Part shown: in pieces, positions 1,991-6,044 of the stretch
Position numbering within the stretch: position 1 is the first letter of the stretch
Layout: the number at the start of each line of letters is the position of its first letter
Origin: Clostridia bacterium
GTDB taxonomy: Bacteria > Bacillota > Clostridia > Oscillospirales > Acutalibacteraceae
Assembly: GCA_017465825.1 (NCBI GenBank)
Contig: JAFTVI010000012.1
Span: 57,889-121,888, forward strand
Reading direction: 5' to 3'
Length of the DNA: 64,000 bases
Made by a program: the position numbers and the translations under genes
The notes under the pieces: model-generated
Database searches by the model: none
Told to the model about the DNA's origin: nothing
The model's input: only the letters and a program-made list of their open reading frames with translations

Positions 1991-2116
1991 AATAGCACCT
2001 TCTATATATTAGTATGTATATTATAATAAATATATATTACTCTTATGCGACCTTTTTCGCAATAGTAAAAACCGCCAAATCATAGAAATATGAAAAAGAA
2101 CTGTTTATTTAAAATG

Positions 2117-2145
2117 TTGACAATATCAGTAAAATTATGTATACT
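2117..2145 (+). promoter_or_regulatory. Promoter of toxin-like unit 1
   Basis: TTGACA (2117-2122), a 17-base spacer and TATACT (2140-2145). Predicted transcript start is about 2152. The leader then folds as AAGGT-GTT-GCCTT, conserved with one wobble change relative to unit 2. Confidence 0.85.
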
Positions 2146-2212
2146 CTTGCTGTAAGGTGTTGCCTTAAACGGTAGGCGGTTGCAATCTTCCCCTGAAAAG
2201 GGGGGTGGTTAG

Positions 2213-2311
2213 ATGCACTATGTTACATACGAGGAACTTATTGCTCTTCTGATGTTACTTGTAAGCATTGTTGAATTAATTATATTAATTTTAAACCATA
2301 AAAAGAAATAA
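2213..2311 (+). CDS. Small membrane toxin-like peptide 1 (holin-like / type I toxin)
   Basis: This 32-residue peptide starts MHYVTYEEL, has one hydrophobic helix of about 20 residues and ends NHKKK. That architecture matches the putative holin-like toxins and other type I toxins of Firmicutes (short, one membrane span, basic tail). The G-rich ribosome site (2199-2207) lies 5-14 bases before ATG and can pair with CCCCT at 2190-2194, so it is probably masked in the mRNA. A second copy (3382-3483) shares YVTYE and HKKK. The gene runs into a bidirectional hairpin and faces an antisense promoter at 2403-2431. Toxicity is inferred from layout and peptide type, not shown. Confidence 0.75.
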   Translation: MHYVTYEELIALLMLLVSIVELIILILNHKKK

Positions 2312-2396
2312 CCGCCCTCCCTGAACAAGTTGGCGGTTATTCTTTGAATTAATCAAAAACTTCTTGGGGTGCAACCGTCTATCGGTAACACCTTGC
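2300..2396 (-). ncRNA. Predicted antisense antitoxin RNA of unit 1
   Basis: A perfect consensus minus-strand promoter (TTGACA, 17 bases, TATAAT; 2426-2431 and 2403-2408) predicts a start near 2396. Transcription would run to the hairpin ATAACCGCC / GGCGGTTAT (2308-2316, 2332-2340) followed by a minus-strand T-run, giving an RNA of about 100 nt. Its 3' half is complementary to the toxin mRNA 3' end, including the last toxin codons. No open frame of note lies on it. Its 5' end folds as TGCAA / TTGCA. Confidence 0.7.
2308..2340. terminator. Shared bidirectional terminator, unit 1
   Basis: The 9-bp stem ATAACCGCC / GGCGGTTAT is flanked by AAAGAA on the left and TTCTTT on the right, so it can stop both the toxin mRNA and the antisense RNA. 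GGCGGTT in the toxin leader (2176-2182) can also pair with its left arm, giving a possible 5'-3' long-range contact. Confidence 0.75.
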
Positions 2397-2402
2397 ATTT
2401 AT

Positions 2403-2431
2403 ATTATATGCTATCGTCCGTGCTTTGTCAA
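2403..2431 (-). promoter_or_regulatory. Consensus antisense promoter, unit 1
   Basis: On the minus strand: TTGACA, a 17-base spacer (AAGCACGGACGATAGCA) and TATAAT. It is a perfect match to the sigma-A consensus and stronger than the facing toxin promoter, as expected for an antitoxin RNA. Confidence 0.85.
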
Positions 2432-2450
2432 GTGCGGATTTATATGTACA

Positions 2451-3170
2451 TTAGAACAGACCGCCATTGTATTTTGTCTGAATTTTGAAAATATACACAA
2501 GGCAGATAATCATTCCAACAATAAGTAAAACAGAGCCAATTATTTCTATAACTTTTATATGAGCAAATAAGGATAAAAAACTATCAATAAATGTCGGTAT
2601 GCTCATACATATTGTGGCATTACCCATTTCTTTTGCATATCCATCAGTATCCGTAACATTTTTGTAGTGATATGAATGTAAAAGAGAAAGATTTCCTTTT
2701 CTTATGGAACATCCTGATAATAACAACCAAAAAGCAATGACAGTCATAACAACCGCAACCTTGATGTTTTCTGTTTTAAGTTGTGTGAATATTATTGGAA
2801 GCAGTTCATTTATTATTGAGTATAAAGTGGGAATTAAAATGATTAAAAGCACTGATGTATACACAATAATTTGAACAGCTTGCTTTTTCTTGTTTTTTTT
2901 TGCTTCTTTAAAAACAGAGATAATATTTTCGTCTGCTATTTCTTTAATATTATCCGGCTGAAACCTTTTTCCTGCCAACAGTTCATTTACACTTATGCCG
3001 AAAAGTTCACTTAATGCCATAAGAGATGTTACATCGGGATAGCCTTTGCCTGTTTCCCACCTTGAAACAGCTTTGTCAGAAATATTCAATTTTTCAGCAA
3101 GTTGTTTTTGTGTAAGTCCTTGTTCTTTTCTGAGAACAGTAATAAATTCTCCGCATTCTTTAGATGTCAT
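2451..3170 (-). CDS. XRE-family regulator with C-terminal membrane domain
   Basis: This 239-residue protein has an N-terminal Cro/C1 helix-turn-helix at about residues 7-62 (TQKQLAEKLNISDKAVSRWE, then GYPDVTSLMALSELFGISV). A lysine-rich linker and about four hydrophobic segments follow (about 95-120, 135-152, 185-205, 210-230), so it is probably anchored in the cytoplasmic membrane. HTH proteins with trailing membrane domains are common in Clostridia, often next to transporters or peptide genes; targets are unknown. The gene sits exactly between the two toxin/antisense units. A candidate promoter at 3234-3262 resembles the antisense promoters of those units, which hints at co-duplication or shared control. 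Confidence 0.85.
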   Translation of the reverse strand: MTSKECGEFITVLRKEQGLTQKQLAEKLNISDKAVSRWETGKGYPDVTSLMALSELFGISVNELLAGKRFQPDNIKEIADENIISVFKEAKKNKKKQAVQIIVYTSVLLIILIPTLYSIINELLPIIFTQLKTENIKVAVVMTVIAFWLLLSGCSIRKGNLSLLHSYHYKNVTDTDGYAKEMGNATICMSIPTFIDSFLSLFAHIKVIEIIGSVLLIVGMIICLVYIFKIQTKYNGGLF

Positions 3171-3233
3171 ATTAACACCGCCTTTGATAAAAGAATATCA
3201 TAAAAACATAAATATTTTCAACCTATGAATCGT

Positions 3234-3262
3234 AGAATAGCTATATTATCCGTGCTTGTTAA
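3234..3262 (-). promoter_or_regulatory. Candidate promoter of the XRE gene, related to the antisense promoters
   Basis: On the minus strand: TTAACA, 17 bases, TATTCT. The spacer AGCACGGATAATATAGC closely resembles the antisense spacers (AAGCACGGATGATAGCA). It looks like a diverged third copy of the same promoter. Confidence 0.45.
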
Positions 3263-3292
3263 GTATATATTTTTTTATAATACGGTTTGATG

Positions 3293-3321
3293 TTGACAAA
3301 AAACAGATAATTATGTATACT
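3293..3321 (+). promoter_or_regulatory. Promoter of toxin-like unit 2
   Basis: TTGACA (3293-3298), 17 bases, TATACT (3316-3321), the same as unit 1. The transcript would begin near 3328 with the hairpin AAGGT-GTT-ACCTT. Confidence 0.85.
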
Positions 3322-3381
3322 CTTGCTGTAAGGTGTTACCTTAAACGGTAGGCGGTTGAATCCACACCCTCGTAAGGGGTG

Positions 3382-3483
3382 ATGCTTATGTACGTTACAT
3401 ACGAACAGCTTTTTGCTTTTACAATGATGATTGTAGGAATTATTGGGCTGGTCGTTGCAGTCCTTGAGCATAAAAAGAAATAA
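3382..3483 (+). CDS. Small membrane toxin-like peptide 2 (holin-like / type I toxin)
   Basis: This 33-residue peptide starts MLMYVTYEQL, has a hydrophobic helix and ends LEHKKK. It is a paralogue of the peptide at 2213-2311, sharing YVTYE at the N-terminus and HKKK at the C-terminus with a diverged membrane core. The alternative ATG at 3388 would remove two residues. The G-rich ribosome site (3376-3381) can pair with CACCC at 3365-3369, the same masking as unit 1 by different bases. That covariation supports a functional RNA structure. It faces an antisense promoter at 3574-3602. Confidence 0.75.
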   Translation: MLMYVTYEQLFAFTMMIVGIIGLVVAVLEHKKK

Positions 3484-3567
3484 CCGCCCCTGCATACCAA
3501 ACTGAGGACGGTTTATTTCTTTAAACTGAATCTGTGAGGGTGCAACCGTCTATCGGTAACACCTTAC
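3472..3567 (-). ncRNA. Predicted antisense antitoxin RNA of unit 2
   Basis: It is driven by the consensus promoter at 3574-3602 and ends at the hairpin around 3478-3514 with a minus-strand T-run. Length is about 95 nt. The 5' arm TGTAA / TTGCA keeps the unit 1 hairpin through a wobble pair. It overlaps the last codons of the second peptide. Confidence 0.7.
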
Positions 3568-3573
3568 ATTTAT

Positions 3574-3602
3574 ATTATATGCTATCATCCGTGCTTTGTC
3601 AA
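3574..3602 (-). promoter_or_regulatory. Consensus antisense promoter, unit 2
   Basis: On the minus strand: TTGACA, 17-base spacer AAGCACGGATGATAGCA, TATAAT. One base differs from the unit 1 spacer. Confidence 0.85.
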
Positions 3603-3610
3603 GTGCGGAT

Positions 3611-4261
3611 TTATTTCTGCTTGATTTTCGGCAGATCCCATCTGAAATGCGCGGCGAGGATTCGTACTGTCATTATGAATACAAGTGTTACCGAAACTGC
3701 GATGTATTCGTTTATGCTGAAATAAATCATATAATAGTATATAATTCCTCCGATGATTGCAGGTAATGCGTAAACCTGTTTTCTCAGCACCATAGGAATT
3801 GTACCTACAAACAAATCTCTTATAATGCCGCCGCCGATACCTGTCAGCACGCCGACGCATATTGACAGGAATGCATTTTCGCCGTAACCGCTTGTTGCCG
3901 CCGTATTGATACCCACAACCACGAAAATTGCAAGTCCGAGGGCATCAAAAACATTTACTATCGTTTCATAGGTTTTTGACTCAAGAATTTTTCTCGCGGT
4001 GATGATGTATTCAAGTATGAATACCAGTATTGCAAGTGCCGCCGCCAATGCCGCATATATAGGTGTTTTGAACATCATAGGCGGAAACTGACCGAGCAGA
4101 ATATCCCTTATGCACCCGCCGCCGACAGCCGTTACCGTTCCTACTACGACTGCGCCGAAAATATCAAGTTCACGGCGGATTGCGACTAACGTGCCTGCTA
4201 TGGAAAATGCAGCAGTGCCTATAAGCTCTGCTGCAAAAAATATTATTTGTGAAAAGGACAT
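3611..4261 (-). CDS. TRIC-family (UPF0126) membrane channel protein
   Basis: This 216-residue, very hydrophobic protein is built of two related halves with glycine-rich signatures: GTVTAVGGGCIRDILLG near residue 40 and GVLTGIGGGIIRDLFVG near 135. This is the hallmark of the UPF0126/YadS-YicG family, whose structures show TRIC-type cation channels of about seven helices. It would sit in the cytoplasmic membrane and pass monovalent cations; the physiological role in bacteria is not settled. The stop lies just inside the right edge of the duplicated toxin unit. The start ATG is one base from the stop of the upstream GH35 gene, so the two are probably co-transcribed. Confidence 0.9.
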   Translation of the reverse strand: MSFSQIIFFAAELIGTAAFSIAGTLVAIRRELDIFGAVVVGTVTAVGGGCIRDILLGQFPPMMFKTPIYAALAAALAILVFILEYIITARKILESKTYETIVNVFDALGLAIFVVVGINTAATSGYGENAFLSICVGVLTGIGGGIIRDLFVGTIPMVLRKQVYALPAIIGGIIYYYMIYFSINEYIAVSVTLVFIMTVRILAAHFRWDLPKIKQK

Positions 4262-4262
4262 A

Positions 4263-6044
4263 TTAACCGTCTAATTCAGGACGCTTGTCAAGGATAACGA
4301 CGGGGTTCTTTTTGCCCTTCTTGAATCCTTCAAGCTCGAGAATTACGATTTCGTTAACTCCCTGATTGAGGAACGGTGCAGGAAGATAAGCTGAAAGCTG
4401 AGGTCCTTTGCTCCAGTATCTTGAAAGAGGCTTGCCGTTTACGAAAATCATACCCTTTGTGAAATCGGGAAGCTTAACGAATGTATCGGCAGGTGTTTCT
4501 TCGATAATGAACTGTGCCTTGTAGAATGTGGGGTGATCGAAGAAGATCATATCCGTTTCAGCCTTGAAATCAATAACTGAAAGGTCGTTGAGCTCAAGAG
4601 GATATGCAGTCCAGTTGTAAAGGTAGTTTTGACCGAGTCTTACATACTCTGTGATACCCTTGTGGTCCTTAAGCTCGTGACCGAAGCTTACACGGCCCAT
4701 ATTTTCAACAAGAATTGTAATGTCAAGACCCTCTGCGGGAACACGGAGAGAAACGATTGACTCTTCGTCGTTTCTTGACTGAATAGCATAAAGGTCATCG
4801 TTTACGAAGATATAAGCTCTGTCGTGTACTTCCTTGATAACGAGAGGCTGATAATCGCTGGGACCCTTGATGTGAGTTTTGTACATTATGAAGCCGTAGC
4901 CCTGACCGAGCTTTTCCATAGGAACAGGCTTGAGCAGTTCAAATGCGCTGGAAAGGTTTTCAATGTTTTCAAAAAGACCTGCACAGTGAGTGAAAGGGAT
5001 AGCGCCGTATTTTGCCTTGGGTACCTGAGGATCGAGAGTAGTTTCTTCTTCCTGCTTGACGTGGTTGGCAATAGTCTTTTTGAAAAGCTCGTATTTCTTT
5101 GTGATATCGCCGCTTTCGGTAAGAATACCGTCAGAATCGTAGCTGTTTACGATAGGCTTGTATTCTGTGTCGAAGTTTGCGCCGTTCATCCAACCGAAGT
5201 TTGTGCCGCCGCAGAACATATATGCGGAAACTGATGCATCGTCAGCCATAATGCGCTGAAGGCTTCGTGCCGCGTCCTGAGGCTTTCTTTCGTAATGTCT
5301 GTAGCCCCACTGGTCAAACCAGCCGCTCCAGAATTCGGAACACATAATGGGACCTTCGGGCTGGAACTCACGAAGATAAGGGAAGTTGACCGAGGGGTTA
5401 GCACCGAATTTAACGGTTTTGAGAATACCGTCAACGGAGCCGTTTGCAAGCATATGGTCCTCAATACCGTCTGCAGTGTAGAGCGGAACATTGATACCTC
5501 TGCTGATAAGACCTGCCGCGATATACTGCATATACTTGGCATCGTTGCCGTAGCTGCCGTATTCGTTCTCAACCTGAACCATAATAATGTTGCCGCCGTT
5601 GGTGATCTGGTGAGTTGCAAGTCTGGGGATAAGCTCGTCAAAATACTTATCTACAAAGCCTATGTATCTTTCGTTCATACAACGAAGCTCGATATCGTCG
5701 TACTTGAGCAGCCACCAGGGGAAGCCGCCGAATTCCCACTCGCCGCCGATGTAGGGGCCGGGTCTGACAATAGCATAAAGACCGAGGTCTGCAGCTATGT
5801 CGAGGAATTCTTCGATATTGTTGTTATCGCTGAAATCGAAGGTATCTTCATTCTTCTGATGGCAGTTCCAGGCAACATATGTTTCAACTGTGTTGAAGCC
5901 GCAAGCCTTGAGCTTGAGCAGTCTGTCACGCCAATATTCTTTGGGAATTCTGAAATAGTGAACTGCGCCTGCAACAACGGTAAAGGGATCGTCGTTGAGA
6001 AGGAAGCCGTCCTTGCCGATAGCAAAAGTTTTTGTTGTTTCCAT
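4263..6044 (-). CDS. GH35 beta-galactosidase
   Basis: This 593-residue cytoplasmic enzyme (no signal peptide) belongs to glycoside hydrolase family 35, which removes terminal beta-linked galactose with retention. The N-terminal TIM barrel carries the acid/base region QVENEYGSYG (about residue 158) and the nucleophile region CSEFWSGWFDQWG (about 235), plus RPGPYIGGEWEFGG near 95. A beta-sandwich C-terminal part follows. AGGAG precedes the ATG and a good promoter lies at 6123-6151. It is divergent from the YfcC-like carrier and followed directly by the TRIC gene. Family is certain; the substrate could be any beta-galactoside. Confidence 0.93.
   Translation of the reverse strand: METTKTFAIGKDGFLLNDDPFTVVAGAVHYFRIPKEYWRDRLLKLKACGFNTVETYVAWNCHQKNEDTFDFSDNNNIEEFLDIAADLGLYAIVRPGPYIGGEWEFGGFPWWLLKYDDIELRCMNERYIGFVDKYFDELIPRLATHQITNGGNIIMVQVENEYGSYGNDAKYMQYIAAGLISRGINVPLYTADGIEDHMLANGSVDGILKTVKFGANPSVNFPYLREFQPEGPIMCSEFWSGWFDQWGYRHYERKPQDAARSLQRIMADDASVSAYMFCGGTNFGWMNGANFDTEYKPIVNSYDSDGILTESGDITKKYELFKKTIANHVKQEEETTLDPQVPKAKYGAIPFTHCAGLFENIENLSSAFELLKPVPMEKLGQGYGFIMYKTHIKGPSDYQPLVIKEVHDRAYIFVNDDLYAIQSRNDEESIVSLRVPAEGLDITILVENMGRVSFGHELKDHKGITEYVRLGQNYLYNWTAYPLELNDLSVIDFKAETDMIFFDHPTFYKAQFIIEETPADTFVKLPDFTKGMIFVNGKPLSRYWSKGPQLSAYLPAPFLNQGVNEIVILELEGFKKGKKNPVVILDKRPELDG

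What the first reader, a model, noticed from the sequence alone, without database searches (positions are those of the whole stretch)
2113..3614. Tandem duplicated type I toxin-antitoxin-like units flanking an XRE regulator
Two units of about 330 bp (2113-2443 and 3289-3614) each hold a 32-33 residue membrane peptide gene (+), a consensus antisense promoter (-) and one shared hairpin terminator between them. Promoters, RNA hairpins and peptide ends are conserved while the membrane core has drifted. The XRE gene lies exactly between them. Layout and peptide type fit type I toxin-antitoxin loci of Firmicutes; the exact family is inferred.
Basis: partly seen in the sequence, partly recalled or inferred. 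Interest (0 to 1): 0.8.

Follow-up and report, generated by a model that had tools for sequence, protein, structure and literature searches.

The report
Widespread membrane-peptide toxin-antitoxin RNA cassettes
Two neighbouring copies of a small gene cassette, a short membrane peptide probably kept silent by its own folded messenger RNA and by an opposing RNA, turn out to belong to a large, little-described group of such cassettes in gut bacteria.

Summary
Units 2113-2443 and 3289-3614 each hold facing promoters (antisense 12/12, sense 11/12), a 31-32 aa membrane peptide and one two-way terminator; peptide 2 passes Pfam Hol_Tox, peptide 1 does not. They look like type I toxin-antitoxin loci of the TxpA/BsrG class. 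Transcription and toxicity are inferred.

New here: (1) Toxin mRNA and antisense RNA begin with nearly the same sequence, so an mRNA reading past the terminator would fold into a 26-28 bp 5'-3' panhandle. Sense and antisense starts co-vary by locus (0 of 10,000 permutations), with compensatory pairs. Rfam's BsrG model, which these units fail, has the same helix. (2) The stop codon lies in the terminator stem (90 of 117 called ORFs); the lysine codons before it supply the antisense T-tract. (3) The RNA chassis is widespread (52 of 197 genomes of the order), often multicopy, and carries unlike peptides; 16 of 65 touch Hol_Tox. (4) The XRE gene is a neighbour only: 3 of 135 loci.

Verdict: new variant of a known kind.

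The parts
2117..2145 (+). Unit 1 sense (toxin mRNA) promoter TTGACA-17-TATACT; predicted start about 2151
   Evidence: 11/12; start inferred from the -10 spacing
2151..2184 (+). Unit 1 5' leader, 5' strand of the predicted panhandle (GTAAGGTGTTGCC...GGTAGGCGGTTGCA)
   Evidence: family covariation
2213..2311 (+). Unit 1 peptide, 32 aa, C-terminal KKK; stop codon inside the terminator stem
2307..2341 (.). Unit 1 bidirectional terminator hairpin (AATAACCGCC...GGCGGTTATT)
   Evidence: family covariation
2299..2397 (-). Unit 1 predicted antisense (antitoxin) RNA, about 98 nt; its 5' end resembles the mRNA 5' end
   Evidence: CM hit 81.3 bits (the unit is in the model's training set); fold z -4.6; ends inferred
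2369..2397 (+). Unit 1 panhandle 3' strand in a read-through toxin mRNA (complement of the antisense 5' end)
2403..2431 (-). Unit 1 antisense promoter TTGACA-17-TATAAT
   Evidence: 12/12
2416..2439 (+). Palindrome over the antisense -35; candidate second sense terminator (weak T-tract) or operator
2451..3170 (-). XRE-family regulator with C-terminal hydrophobic part, 239 aa; neighbour, not a component
   Evidence: HTH_3 58.7 bits; association not conserved
3293..3321 (+). Unit 2 sense promoter TTGACA-17-TATACT; predicted start about 3327
   Evidence: 11/12
3327..3360 (+). Unit 2 5' leader, 5' strand of the panhandle
3388..3483 (+). Unit 2 peptide, 31 aa (MYVTYEQ...KKK), Hol_Tox; longer starts at 3382 and 3379 are possible
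   Evidence: start chosen from SD spacing
3479..3516 (.). Unit 2 bidirectional terminator hairpin
3470..3568 (-). Unit 2 predicted antisense RNA
   Evidence: CM hit 76.9 bits (in the training set); fold z -4.1
3541..3568 (+). Unit 2 panhandle 3' strand
3574..3602 (-). Unit 2 antisense promoter TTGACA-17-TATAAT
   Evidence: 12/12
3587..3610 (+). Palindrome over the antisense -35; candidate second sense terminator or operator

Best explanation
Each unit is a type I toxin-antitoxin-like locus of the TxpA/BsrG class. The sense promoter makes an mRNA for a 31-32 aa membrane peptide with a KKK tail. Its leader hides the ribosome-binding site: a C-rich segment pairs with the Shine-Dalgarno sequence. 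The shared terminator has the weaker T-tract in the sense direction, so part of the mRNA probably reads on past the antisense promoter. This long mRNA would close into a panhandle, because its 3' end is the complement of the antisense 5' end, which has nearly the sequence of the mRNA 5' end. The panhandle should protect the mRNA and keep it silent. The antisense promoter makes an antitoxin RNA of about 98 nt, ended by a T-tract that doubles as the peptide's lysine codons. The antitoxin probably meets the mRNA at the complementary terminator loops, pairs along the mRNA 3' part and, through its C-rich 5' part, with the Shine-Dalgarno region; translation block and RNase III decay follow. If the antitoxin runs short, or the 3' strand of the panhandle is trimmed, peptide is made and disturbs the membrane. 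Shown by computation: anatomy, conservation, covariation, predicted folds. Inferred from known families: transcripts, RNA ends, read-through, order of pairing, inhibition, toxicity.
For: Anatomy. Peptide family. Frame under selection. Recurrence: 68 of 78 distinct pattern hits kept as units, each with a T-tailed hairpin starting 32-50 nt into the antisense RNA. CM hits in 52 of 197 genomes of the order at E<=0.001 and 51 of 398 of the phylum at E<=0.01, where about 4 are expected by chance. Sense/antisense 5' likeness is locus-specific: 8.0 against 6.84 of 9 over 85 clusters, 0 of 10,000 permutations; permuting only within genome groups, 0 of 10,000. Upstream, in the promoter, cognate identity is at background. 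Panhandle pairing -19.0 against -12.2 kcal/mol for non-cognates, 66 clusters. On 56 aligned units 95.2% of cells pair and 39 cells changed on both sides against 13.5 (sd 2.8) shuffled, 0 of 500. Long-mRNA folds z -7.4 and -7.6, 0 of 200 shuffles each. Shine-Dalgarno pairing better for cognates: sense leader 1 of 10,000, antisense 38 of 10,000; both coding-region controls null. Terminator T-tract stronger in the antisense direction in 122 and weaker in 10 of 152. Rfam BsrG has the same 5'-3' helix and aligns to relative L163 over its full length below cut-off.
Against: No transcript or toxicity data. Rfam BsrG gives 12.6 bits on unit 1 against a cut-off of 55. Peptide 1 is below the Hol_Tox cut-off. 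A second sense terminator just past the antisense promoter is found in 21 of 148 units (controls 17 of 375); it is common only in this genus (9 of 10 units of G000 and G001, leaving out the doubtful L159), and in the two window units its T-tract is weak, so where a long mRNA would end is open. The direction of G-U-type differences, which would point to RNA-level pairing in the long sense RNA, is not significant inside the motif (15 against 8, p=0.21); a looser count was 42 against 22 (p=0.017) but is inflated by a fixed GGCGG/GACGG difference. The 5' motif shows no cognate pairing with the start region in the sense RNA (3902 of 10,000). Within genome G710 cognate and non-cognate likeness hardly differ (8.00/7.73) and in one pooled group not at all (9.00/9.00). 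The third family-A copy of this genome has an in-frame stop in its peptide.
Confidence: 0.8

Rival explanations
1. The units are Fst/par-type (RNA I/RNA II) loci: convergent RNAs sharing a terminator, with repeats that let the antitoxin cover the translation start.
For: Convergent promoters, bidirectional terminator, a leader that hides the Shine-Dalgarno sequence and antisense pairing to the start region are all listed for par in PMC7472228 (passages).
Against: In par the repeats DRa/DRb are DNA direct repeats, so the two RNAs are complementary there. Here the end repeats are inverted, so the two RNAs are alike. No Fst family is among the Pfam or NCBIfam matches of the two window peptides or in the family lists for 65 peptides.
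Confidence: 0.08
2. The peptides are not toxins but small membrane regulators under antisense control; the RNA chassis is a general switch for membrane peptides.
For: Several unlike peptide groups sit on one RNA chassis. 16 of 65 match Hol_Tox at E<=1; 3 of 65 match the competence inhibitor ComI at E<=0.1.
Against: Layered silencing, tandem multicopy arrays, a decayed copy and antisense copies without a called peptide fit toxin-antitoxin behaviour (judgement). ComI matches are weak (best E 0.0025).
Confidence: 0.2
3. The end repeats are terminal inverted repeats of a non-autonomous mobile element that happens to carry a peptide; likeness of the ends reflects transposase binding.
For: Inverted ends (48 nt at 73%), scattered copies, and no unit within 1.5 kb of the same neighbour gene in five relatives.
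Against: The likeness is confined to the predicted transcript start; upstream it is at background (the -1 position and the 9-mer itself are fixed by the anchoring). Ends vary between loci while matching within a locus. Target-site duplications were not looked for.
Confidence: 0.06
4. The XRE protein is part of the system and controls both antisense promoters.
For: A CAAAGCACGGAY box overlaps both antisense promoters, and the XRE gene's own upstream region holds the similar ACAAGCACGGATAATA.
Against: XRE-like ORFs in 3 of 135 unit-bearing loci, many of them short. Among 11 loci with an XRE relative the best antisense-model match is E 0.041. The box with up to one mismatch occurs 26 times in the genome, against 4 for the reversed pattern, so it is not exclusive to these promoters.
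Confidence: 0.12

Closest known systems
bsrG/SR4 (Rfam RF01412; Bacillus prophage SPbeta) and relatives txpA/RatA, bsrE/SR5
   Same: Short hydrophobic peptide with a lysine tail and antisense RNA over the mRNA 3' part; mRNA with a main 5'-3' helix, hidden ribosome site and a terminator beyond that helix (PMC6562991 passages; PMC3531473 passages).
   Different: Not recognised by RF01412. In SPBc2 the best minus-strand promoter-like site would start the antisense RNA about 60 nt beyond the mRNA terminator, whereas here the antisense start lies at the tip of the panhandle, so both RNAs begin alike. Unit 2 DNA has no match in the phage or plasmid collection. Several unlike peptides on one chassis; tandem arrays.
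Fst/par of pAD1 (RNA I/RNA II)
   Same: Convergent promoters, one bidirectional terminator, a leader hiding the Shine-Dalgarno sequence (PMC7472228 passages).
   Different: Direct repeats there, inverted repeats here; no Fst-family match of the peptides.
aapA/IsoA (and hok/Sok)
   Same: Full-length toxin mRNA kept inert by pairing of its two ends (AapA3: PMC6733600 passages).
   Different: I saw no mention in those passages of an antisense RNA that copies the mRNA 5' end; sequence relation not tested; different bacteria.
Clostridioides difficile type I modules
   Same: Clostridia; small membrane peptides with charged C-terminus; antisense RNA antitoxin (PMC6563280, section 3).
   Different: The review reports no sequence homology of those toxins to earlier ones; not compared directly with these units here.

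Membership tests
Pfam PF16935 Hol_Tox | score at or above the curated cut-off 23.3 bits | tested here: met
   peptide 2: 24.6 bits, 25.1 with a shorter start. Peptide 1: 17.3 bits, not met
Rfam RF01412 BsrG | score at or above 55 bits | tested here: not met
   window: no match at gathering; unit 1 12.6 bits, partial; relatives L163 26.3 and L179 26.1 bits
TxpA/BsrG-class type I locus (as a kind, not the Rfam family) | antisense RNA gene facing and overlapping the toxin mRNA 3' part | tested here: met
   consensus promoters facing each other and a shared terminator; from sequence only
TxpA/BsrG-class type I locus (as a kind, not the Rfam family) | main 5'-3' helix in the toxin mRNA | tested here: met
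   predicted folds z -7.4/-7.6; covariation 0 of 500; holds only for a read-through mRNA
TxpA/BsrG-class type I locus (as a kind, not the Rfam family) | peptide toxic alone, antisense RNA protects | not testable with these tools
   needs expression tests
Fst/par (RNA I/RNA II) | convergent promoters and bidirectional terminator | tested here: met
   defining text
Fst/par (RNA I/RNA II) | direct repeats DRa/DRb giving complementary RNAs | tested here: not met
   the end repeats are inverted
Fst/par (RNA I/RNA II) | Fst-type peptide | tested here: not met
   no Fst family among the Pfam or NCBIfam matches
NCBIfam NF041589 PepG1 | score at or above 70 bits | tested here: not met
   19.2 bits for peptide 2

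The most novel reading that the evidence does not exclude
The units are two members of an undescribed, multicopy RNA superfamily of Firmicutes in which one RNA chassis carries interchangeable membrane peptides. The antitoxin RNA is built as a near copy of the toxin mRNA's own 5' end. That end is a two-way switch: its GGCGGUU can pair with AACCGUC in the mRNA 3' strand (closed panhandle, with a fixed G-U pair) or with AACCGCC at the stop codon (short mRNA). The antitoxin carries GACGGUU, one base different, so it can compete for the panhandle by strand exchange but fits the stop-codon site badly. New loci arise by tandem duplication followed by drift of the shared 5' end, which would keep an antitoxin specific to its own toxin.
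Probability: 0.3. Interest if true: 0.75.

Novelty: new variant of a known kind. Interest (0 to 1): 0.6.

Why it matters
If right, one RNA design, recognised by neither Rfam nor, for most copies, Pfam, silences small membrane peptides in about a quarter of the sampled genomes of one order of gut Firmicutes (52 of 197), often in several copies. It makes a testable case for two open questions on type I systems: how an antitoxin stays specific among many related copies in one genome, and whether the silencing RNA or the peptide is the conserved unit. Here the RNA is conserved and the peptide changes. It also gives an annotation tool: the stop codon sitting in the terminator stem and the shared 5' ends find peptides of 21-40 aa that gene callers often miss (the last point is general knowledge, not tested here).

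Tried and rejected
Fst/par membership: rejected on repeat orientation. XRE gene as a component: rejected as a general feature; the likeness of its promoter region to the antisense promoters is kept as a lead. Phage or plasmid origin: unit 2 DNA has no match in either collection at E<=0.01, and no exact match to GGTGTYACCGATAGACGGTT in viral contigs. The other Rfam matches to the window region are chance-like: ohsC 31.8 bits against a cut-off of 50, and a micro-RNA family.

Ideas that failed or stayed open. (a) G-U asymmetry as proof of the panhandle: 42 against 22 in a loose count, but 15 against 8, p=0.21, when kept to the motif; not used as proof. (b) The shared 5' motif as a second Shine-Dalgarno-blocking element: null for the sense RNA (3902 of 10,000) and weak for the antisense RNA (284 of 10,000); the C-rich part further in does show it. 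(c) Self-complementary (kissing) motif: mean z -0.57, not convincing, although direct sense-antisense 5' pairing is somewhat better for cognates (10 of 10,000). (d) A second sense terminator as a general feature: 21 of 148, so only a feature of this genus.

Rows dropped. From 78 distinct pattern hits 10 were dropped by hand: eight in non-Firmicutes records (L057, L067, L072, L079, L087, L092, L101, L103), L065 (contig end), L096 (unit broken off inside the terminator loop). Of 153 antisense hits, 107 had a callable sense leader and 117 a callable ORF; both callers admit some wrong calls. Of 84 candidate full units I gave 56 to the alignment A3; the 28 left out had a doubtful sense leader or a more divergent motif, so speaks for the A-like family only. 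Of 95 distinct called peptides, 64 went into alignment A2 with two more read by eye; 65 of the 66 were scanned.
Full report
What is there. In each, a sense promoter (11 of 12 consensus positions) faces an antisense promoter (12 of 12); these are the four best sites of the 3 kb scanned. Between them lie a leader, a peptide of 31-32 aa and a hairpin with T-rich sequence on both sides. Peptide 2 passes the Pfam Hol_Tox cut-off, peptide 1 matches below it. The mean of shuffled promoter counts is 9.2 against 19 found.

Relatives in the same genome. A third copy lies on contig C10 and has an in-frame TAA in the peptide. A covariance model of the antisense RNA (below) gives 10 matches at E<=0.0022 in this genome. 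By eye seven are convincing units: the two of the window, C10, C36, C22, C28 and C21. The last four have a different 5' motif (TCAAGAGG...) and different peptides; C33 is doubtful and C9 looks unrelated.

Relatives elsewhere. The pattern of the antisense 5' end, allowing one mismatch, occurs in 5 of 398 genomes of the family, with no match to the reversed pattern. In 84,980 named genomes an exact degenerate form gives 76 stretches. With the copies already held, these make 78 distinct hits, of which 68 were kept as units, each with a T-tailed hairpin 32-50 nt into the RNA; eight of the ten dropped were in non-Firmicutes records, about what chance gives for such a pattern (the chance figure is my estimate). 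Hosts include Lachnospiraceae, Oscillospiraceae, Eubacterium and Phascolarctobacterium records. A covariance model R1 from 66 of these antisense RNAs finds matches in 51 of 398 genomes of the phylum at E<=0.01, where about 4 are expected by chance, and in 52 of 197 genomes of the order at E<=0.001. Genome G710 has 15. Tandem arrays of about 333-bp units occur: four matches in L168 of G746 and five in a row in G878. Because the first set was chosen by its 5' motif, the conservation of that motif in A1 is partly by selection; the sense side and the CM hits were not chosen that way.

The RNA chassis and its peptides. Of 153 antisense hits (68 by pattern, 85 by model) 117 had a callable ORF. In 90 of these 117 the stop codon is followed directly by CCG, so that it forms part of the terminator stem; AAAAAGAAATAA is the commonest last stretch (28 of 102 ORFs that end at the terminator). 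Its complement is the T-tract of the antisense RNA. The terminator T-tract is stronger in the antisense direction in 122 and weaker in 10 of 152. The peptides fall into several unlike groups; 16 of 65 match Hol_Tox at E<=1, and no other family is shared by more than 4. PHROGs gave two single weak matches. Where peptides are alike, the frame is under selection: pS 0.59, pN 0.24 in frame against 0.36/0.27 and 0.22/0.36 in the other frames, over 48 non-independent pairs preselected for likeness; the window pair has dN 0.37 and dS 1.19.

Shared 5' ends. Sense and antisense RNA of a unit start with nearly the same sequence: GTAAGGTGTTRCC...ACGGT in the window units. In other units both ends change together, for example GGAGCTACC in L127, AGGCATGACGC in L169, AGTGCCGGAA in L173. 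Over 85 clusters the best 9-mer match is 8.0 for cognate and 6.84 for non-cognate pairs, 0 of 10,000 permutations. Permuting only within three genomes and two pooled groups also gives 0 of 10,000; but in G710 the difference is small (8.00/7.73) and in one pooled group nil (9.00/9.00). Upstream of the segment, in the promoters, cognate identity is at background (the -1 position and the 9-mer itself are fixed by the anchoring). This argues for selection on RNA rather than for copying of DNA.

What the shared ends would do. An mRNA that passes the terminator and the antisense promoter carries the complement of the antisense 5' end, and so of its own 5' end. Both window units then fold into a panhandle of 14+14 or 14+12 pairs, z -7.4 and -7.6, 0 of 200 shuffles each; cut at the terminator they give z -2.6 and -2.3, 2 of 200 each. 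On 56 aligned full units (of 84 candidates) 95.2% of cells of the panhandle pair; 39 cells changed on both sides against 13.5 (sd 2.8) in shuffles, 0 of 500, and more than in any slid version. The clearest compensatory pairs are columns 18/426, 20/424 and 26/422. The terminator helix also covaries (13 cells, 0 of 500). One sign of a second role for the stop-codon arm: column 339 is C in 50 of 53 units though its terminator partner fits in only 26 of 53, while it fits G43 of the leader in 55 of 56. The pair GGCGGUU/AACCGCC hardly varies, so this is conservation, not covariation; the centroid fold of short unit 2 shows that pairing.

Shine-Dalgarno pairing. The sense leader (15-45) pairs better with its own start region than with others (1 of 10,000), and so does the antisense RNA (18-45) (38 of 10,000); two coding-region controls are null. 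With a longer antisense piece the result was 40 of 10,000. The 5' motif alone does not do this in the sense RNA (3902 of 10,000).

Known relatives. No Rfam family reaches its cut-off in the window. BsrG (RF01412) is the family that comes closest in kind: 26.3 bits over its full length on L163 and 26.1 on L179, 12.6 bits on window unit 1, cut-off 55. Its consensus structure, shown on the SPbeta copy, has the same 5'-3' helix. Reviews describe this 'main helix' of bsrG RNA, first contact between terminator loop and toxin mRNA loop, and hidden ribosome sites (PMC6562991, passages); txpA mRNA is cleaved on both sides of a long-range helix by RNase III (PMC3531473, passages). In par of pAD1 the repeats are direct (PMC7472228, passages), here inverted. 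AapA3 mRNA is inert in full length through pairing of its ends (PMC6733600, passages).

In print? Searches for such units in gut Clostridia or Negativicutes, or for sense and antisense RNAs with the same 5' end, found nothing on the subject in this library (listings, plus the passages named). The library lacks most subscription papers, so this is not proof of absence.

The XRE gene. It is an HTH_3 protein with a hydrophobic C-terminal part. Ten of 60 genomes of the family have a relative at E<=1e-20, but the best antisense-model match near 11 such loci is E 0.041, and only 3 of 135 unit-bearing loci, many of them short, hold an XRE-like ORF. Beside the same downstream gene (TRIC-like, a name recalled from its look) five relatives have no unit within 1.5 kb.

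Conclusion. What is added is that the units belong to a broad RNA superfamily akin to BsrG/TxpA, with swapped peptides and with an antitoxin RNA that starts like the toxin mRNA. Confidence 0.8 for the class and anatomy, lower for each inferred step.

Noticed in passing
L003 (G000:C10:16070-16321): Third family-A copy in the same genome; promoters and terminator intact, peptide frame interrupted by an in-frame TAA.
   Followed up: partly
L158, L161, L162, L163 (G000 contigs C36, C22, C28, C21): A second type of unit in the same genome with 5' motif TCAAGAGG/CCAAGAAG and peptides such as ...VTLTIKKK; sense and antisense 5' ends again alike.
   Followed up: partly
L168 (G746) and G878:C1:290981-292417: Tandem arrays of four and five antisense-model matches spaced about 333 bp.
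   Followed up: no
L096: An antisense half-unit that breaks off inside the terminator loop and runs into unrelated sequence.
   Followed up: no
L088, L111 and others: Antisense units with promoter and terminator but no sense leader found, and in L111 no ORF called: possible orphan antitoxin RNAs.
   Followed up: no
window 3215-3275 and 2403-2439, 3574-3610: The upstream region of the XRE gene (TTAACAAGCACGGATAATATAGCTATTCT) resembles both antisense promoters (TTGACAAAGCACGGAYGATAGCATATAAT); box with up to one mismatch 26 times in the genome, reversed pattern 4.
   Followed up: partly
window 2367-2443 and 3538-3614: The two antisense halves are 97% identical while the rest has drifted, so antisense 1 could pair with about 30 nt of the mRNA 2 3' strand; the terminator loops differ.
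   Followed up: no
L054, L058, L059, L120, L124: Terminators whose sense left arm keeps AACCGCC although the right arm no longer matches all of it.
   Followed up: partly
alignment A2: Three of 65 peptides weakly match the competence inhibitor ComI in NCBIfam (best E 0.0025).
   Followed up: no
window 4263-6044 and 3611-4261: A beta-galactosidase-like gene and a small membrane-protein gene next to it stay together in five genomes of the genus, without the units; gene names are my reading.
   Followed up: partly
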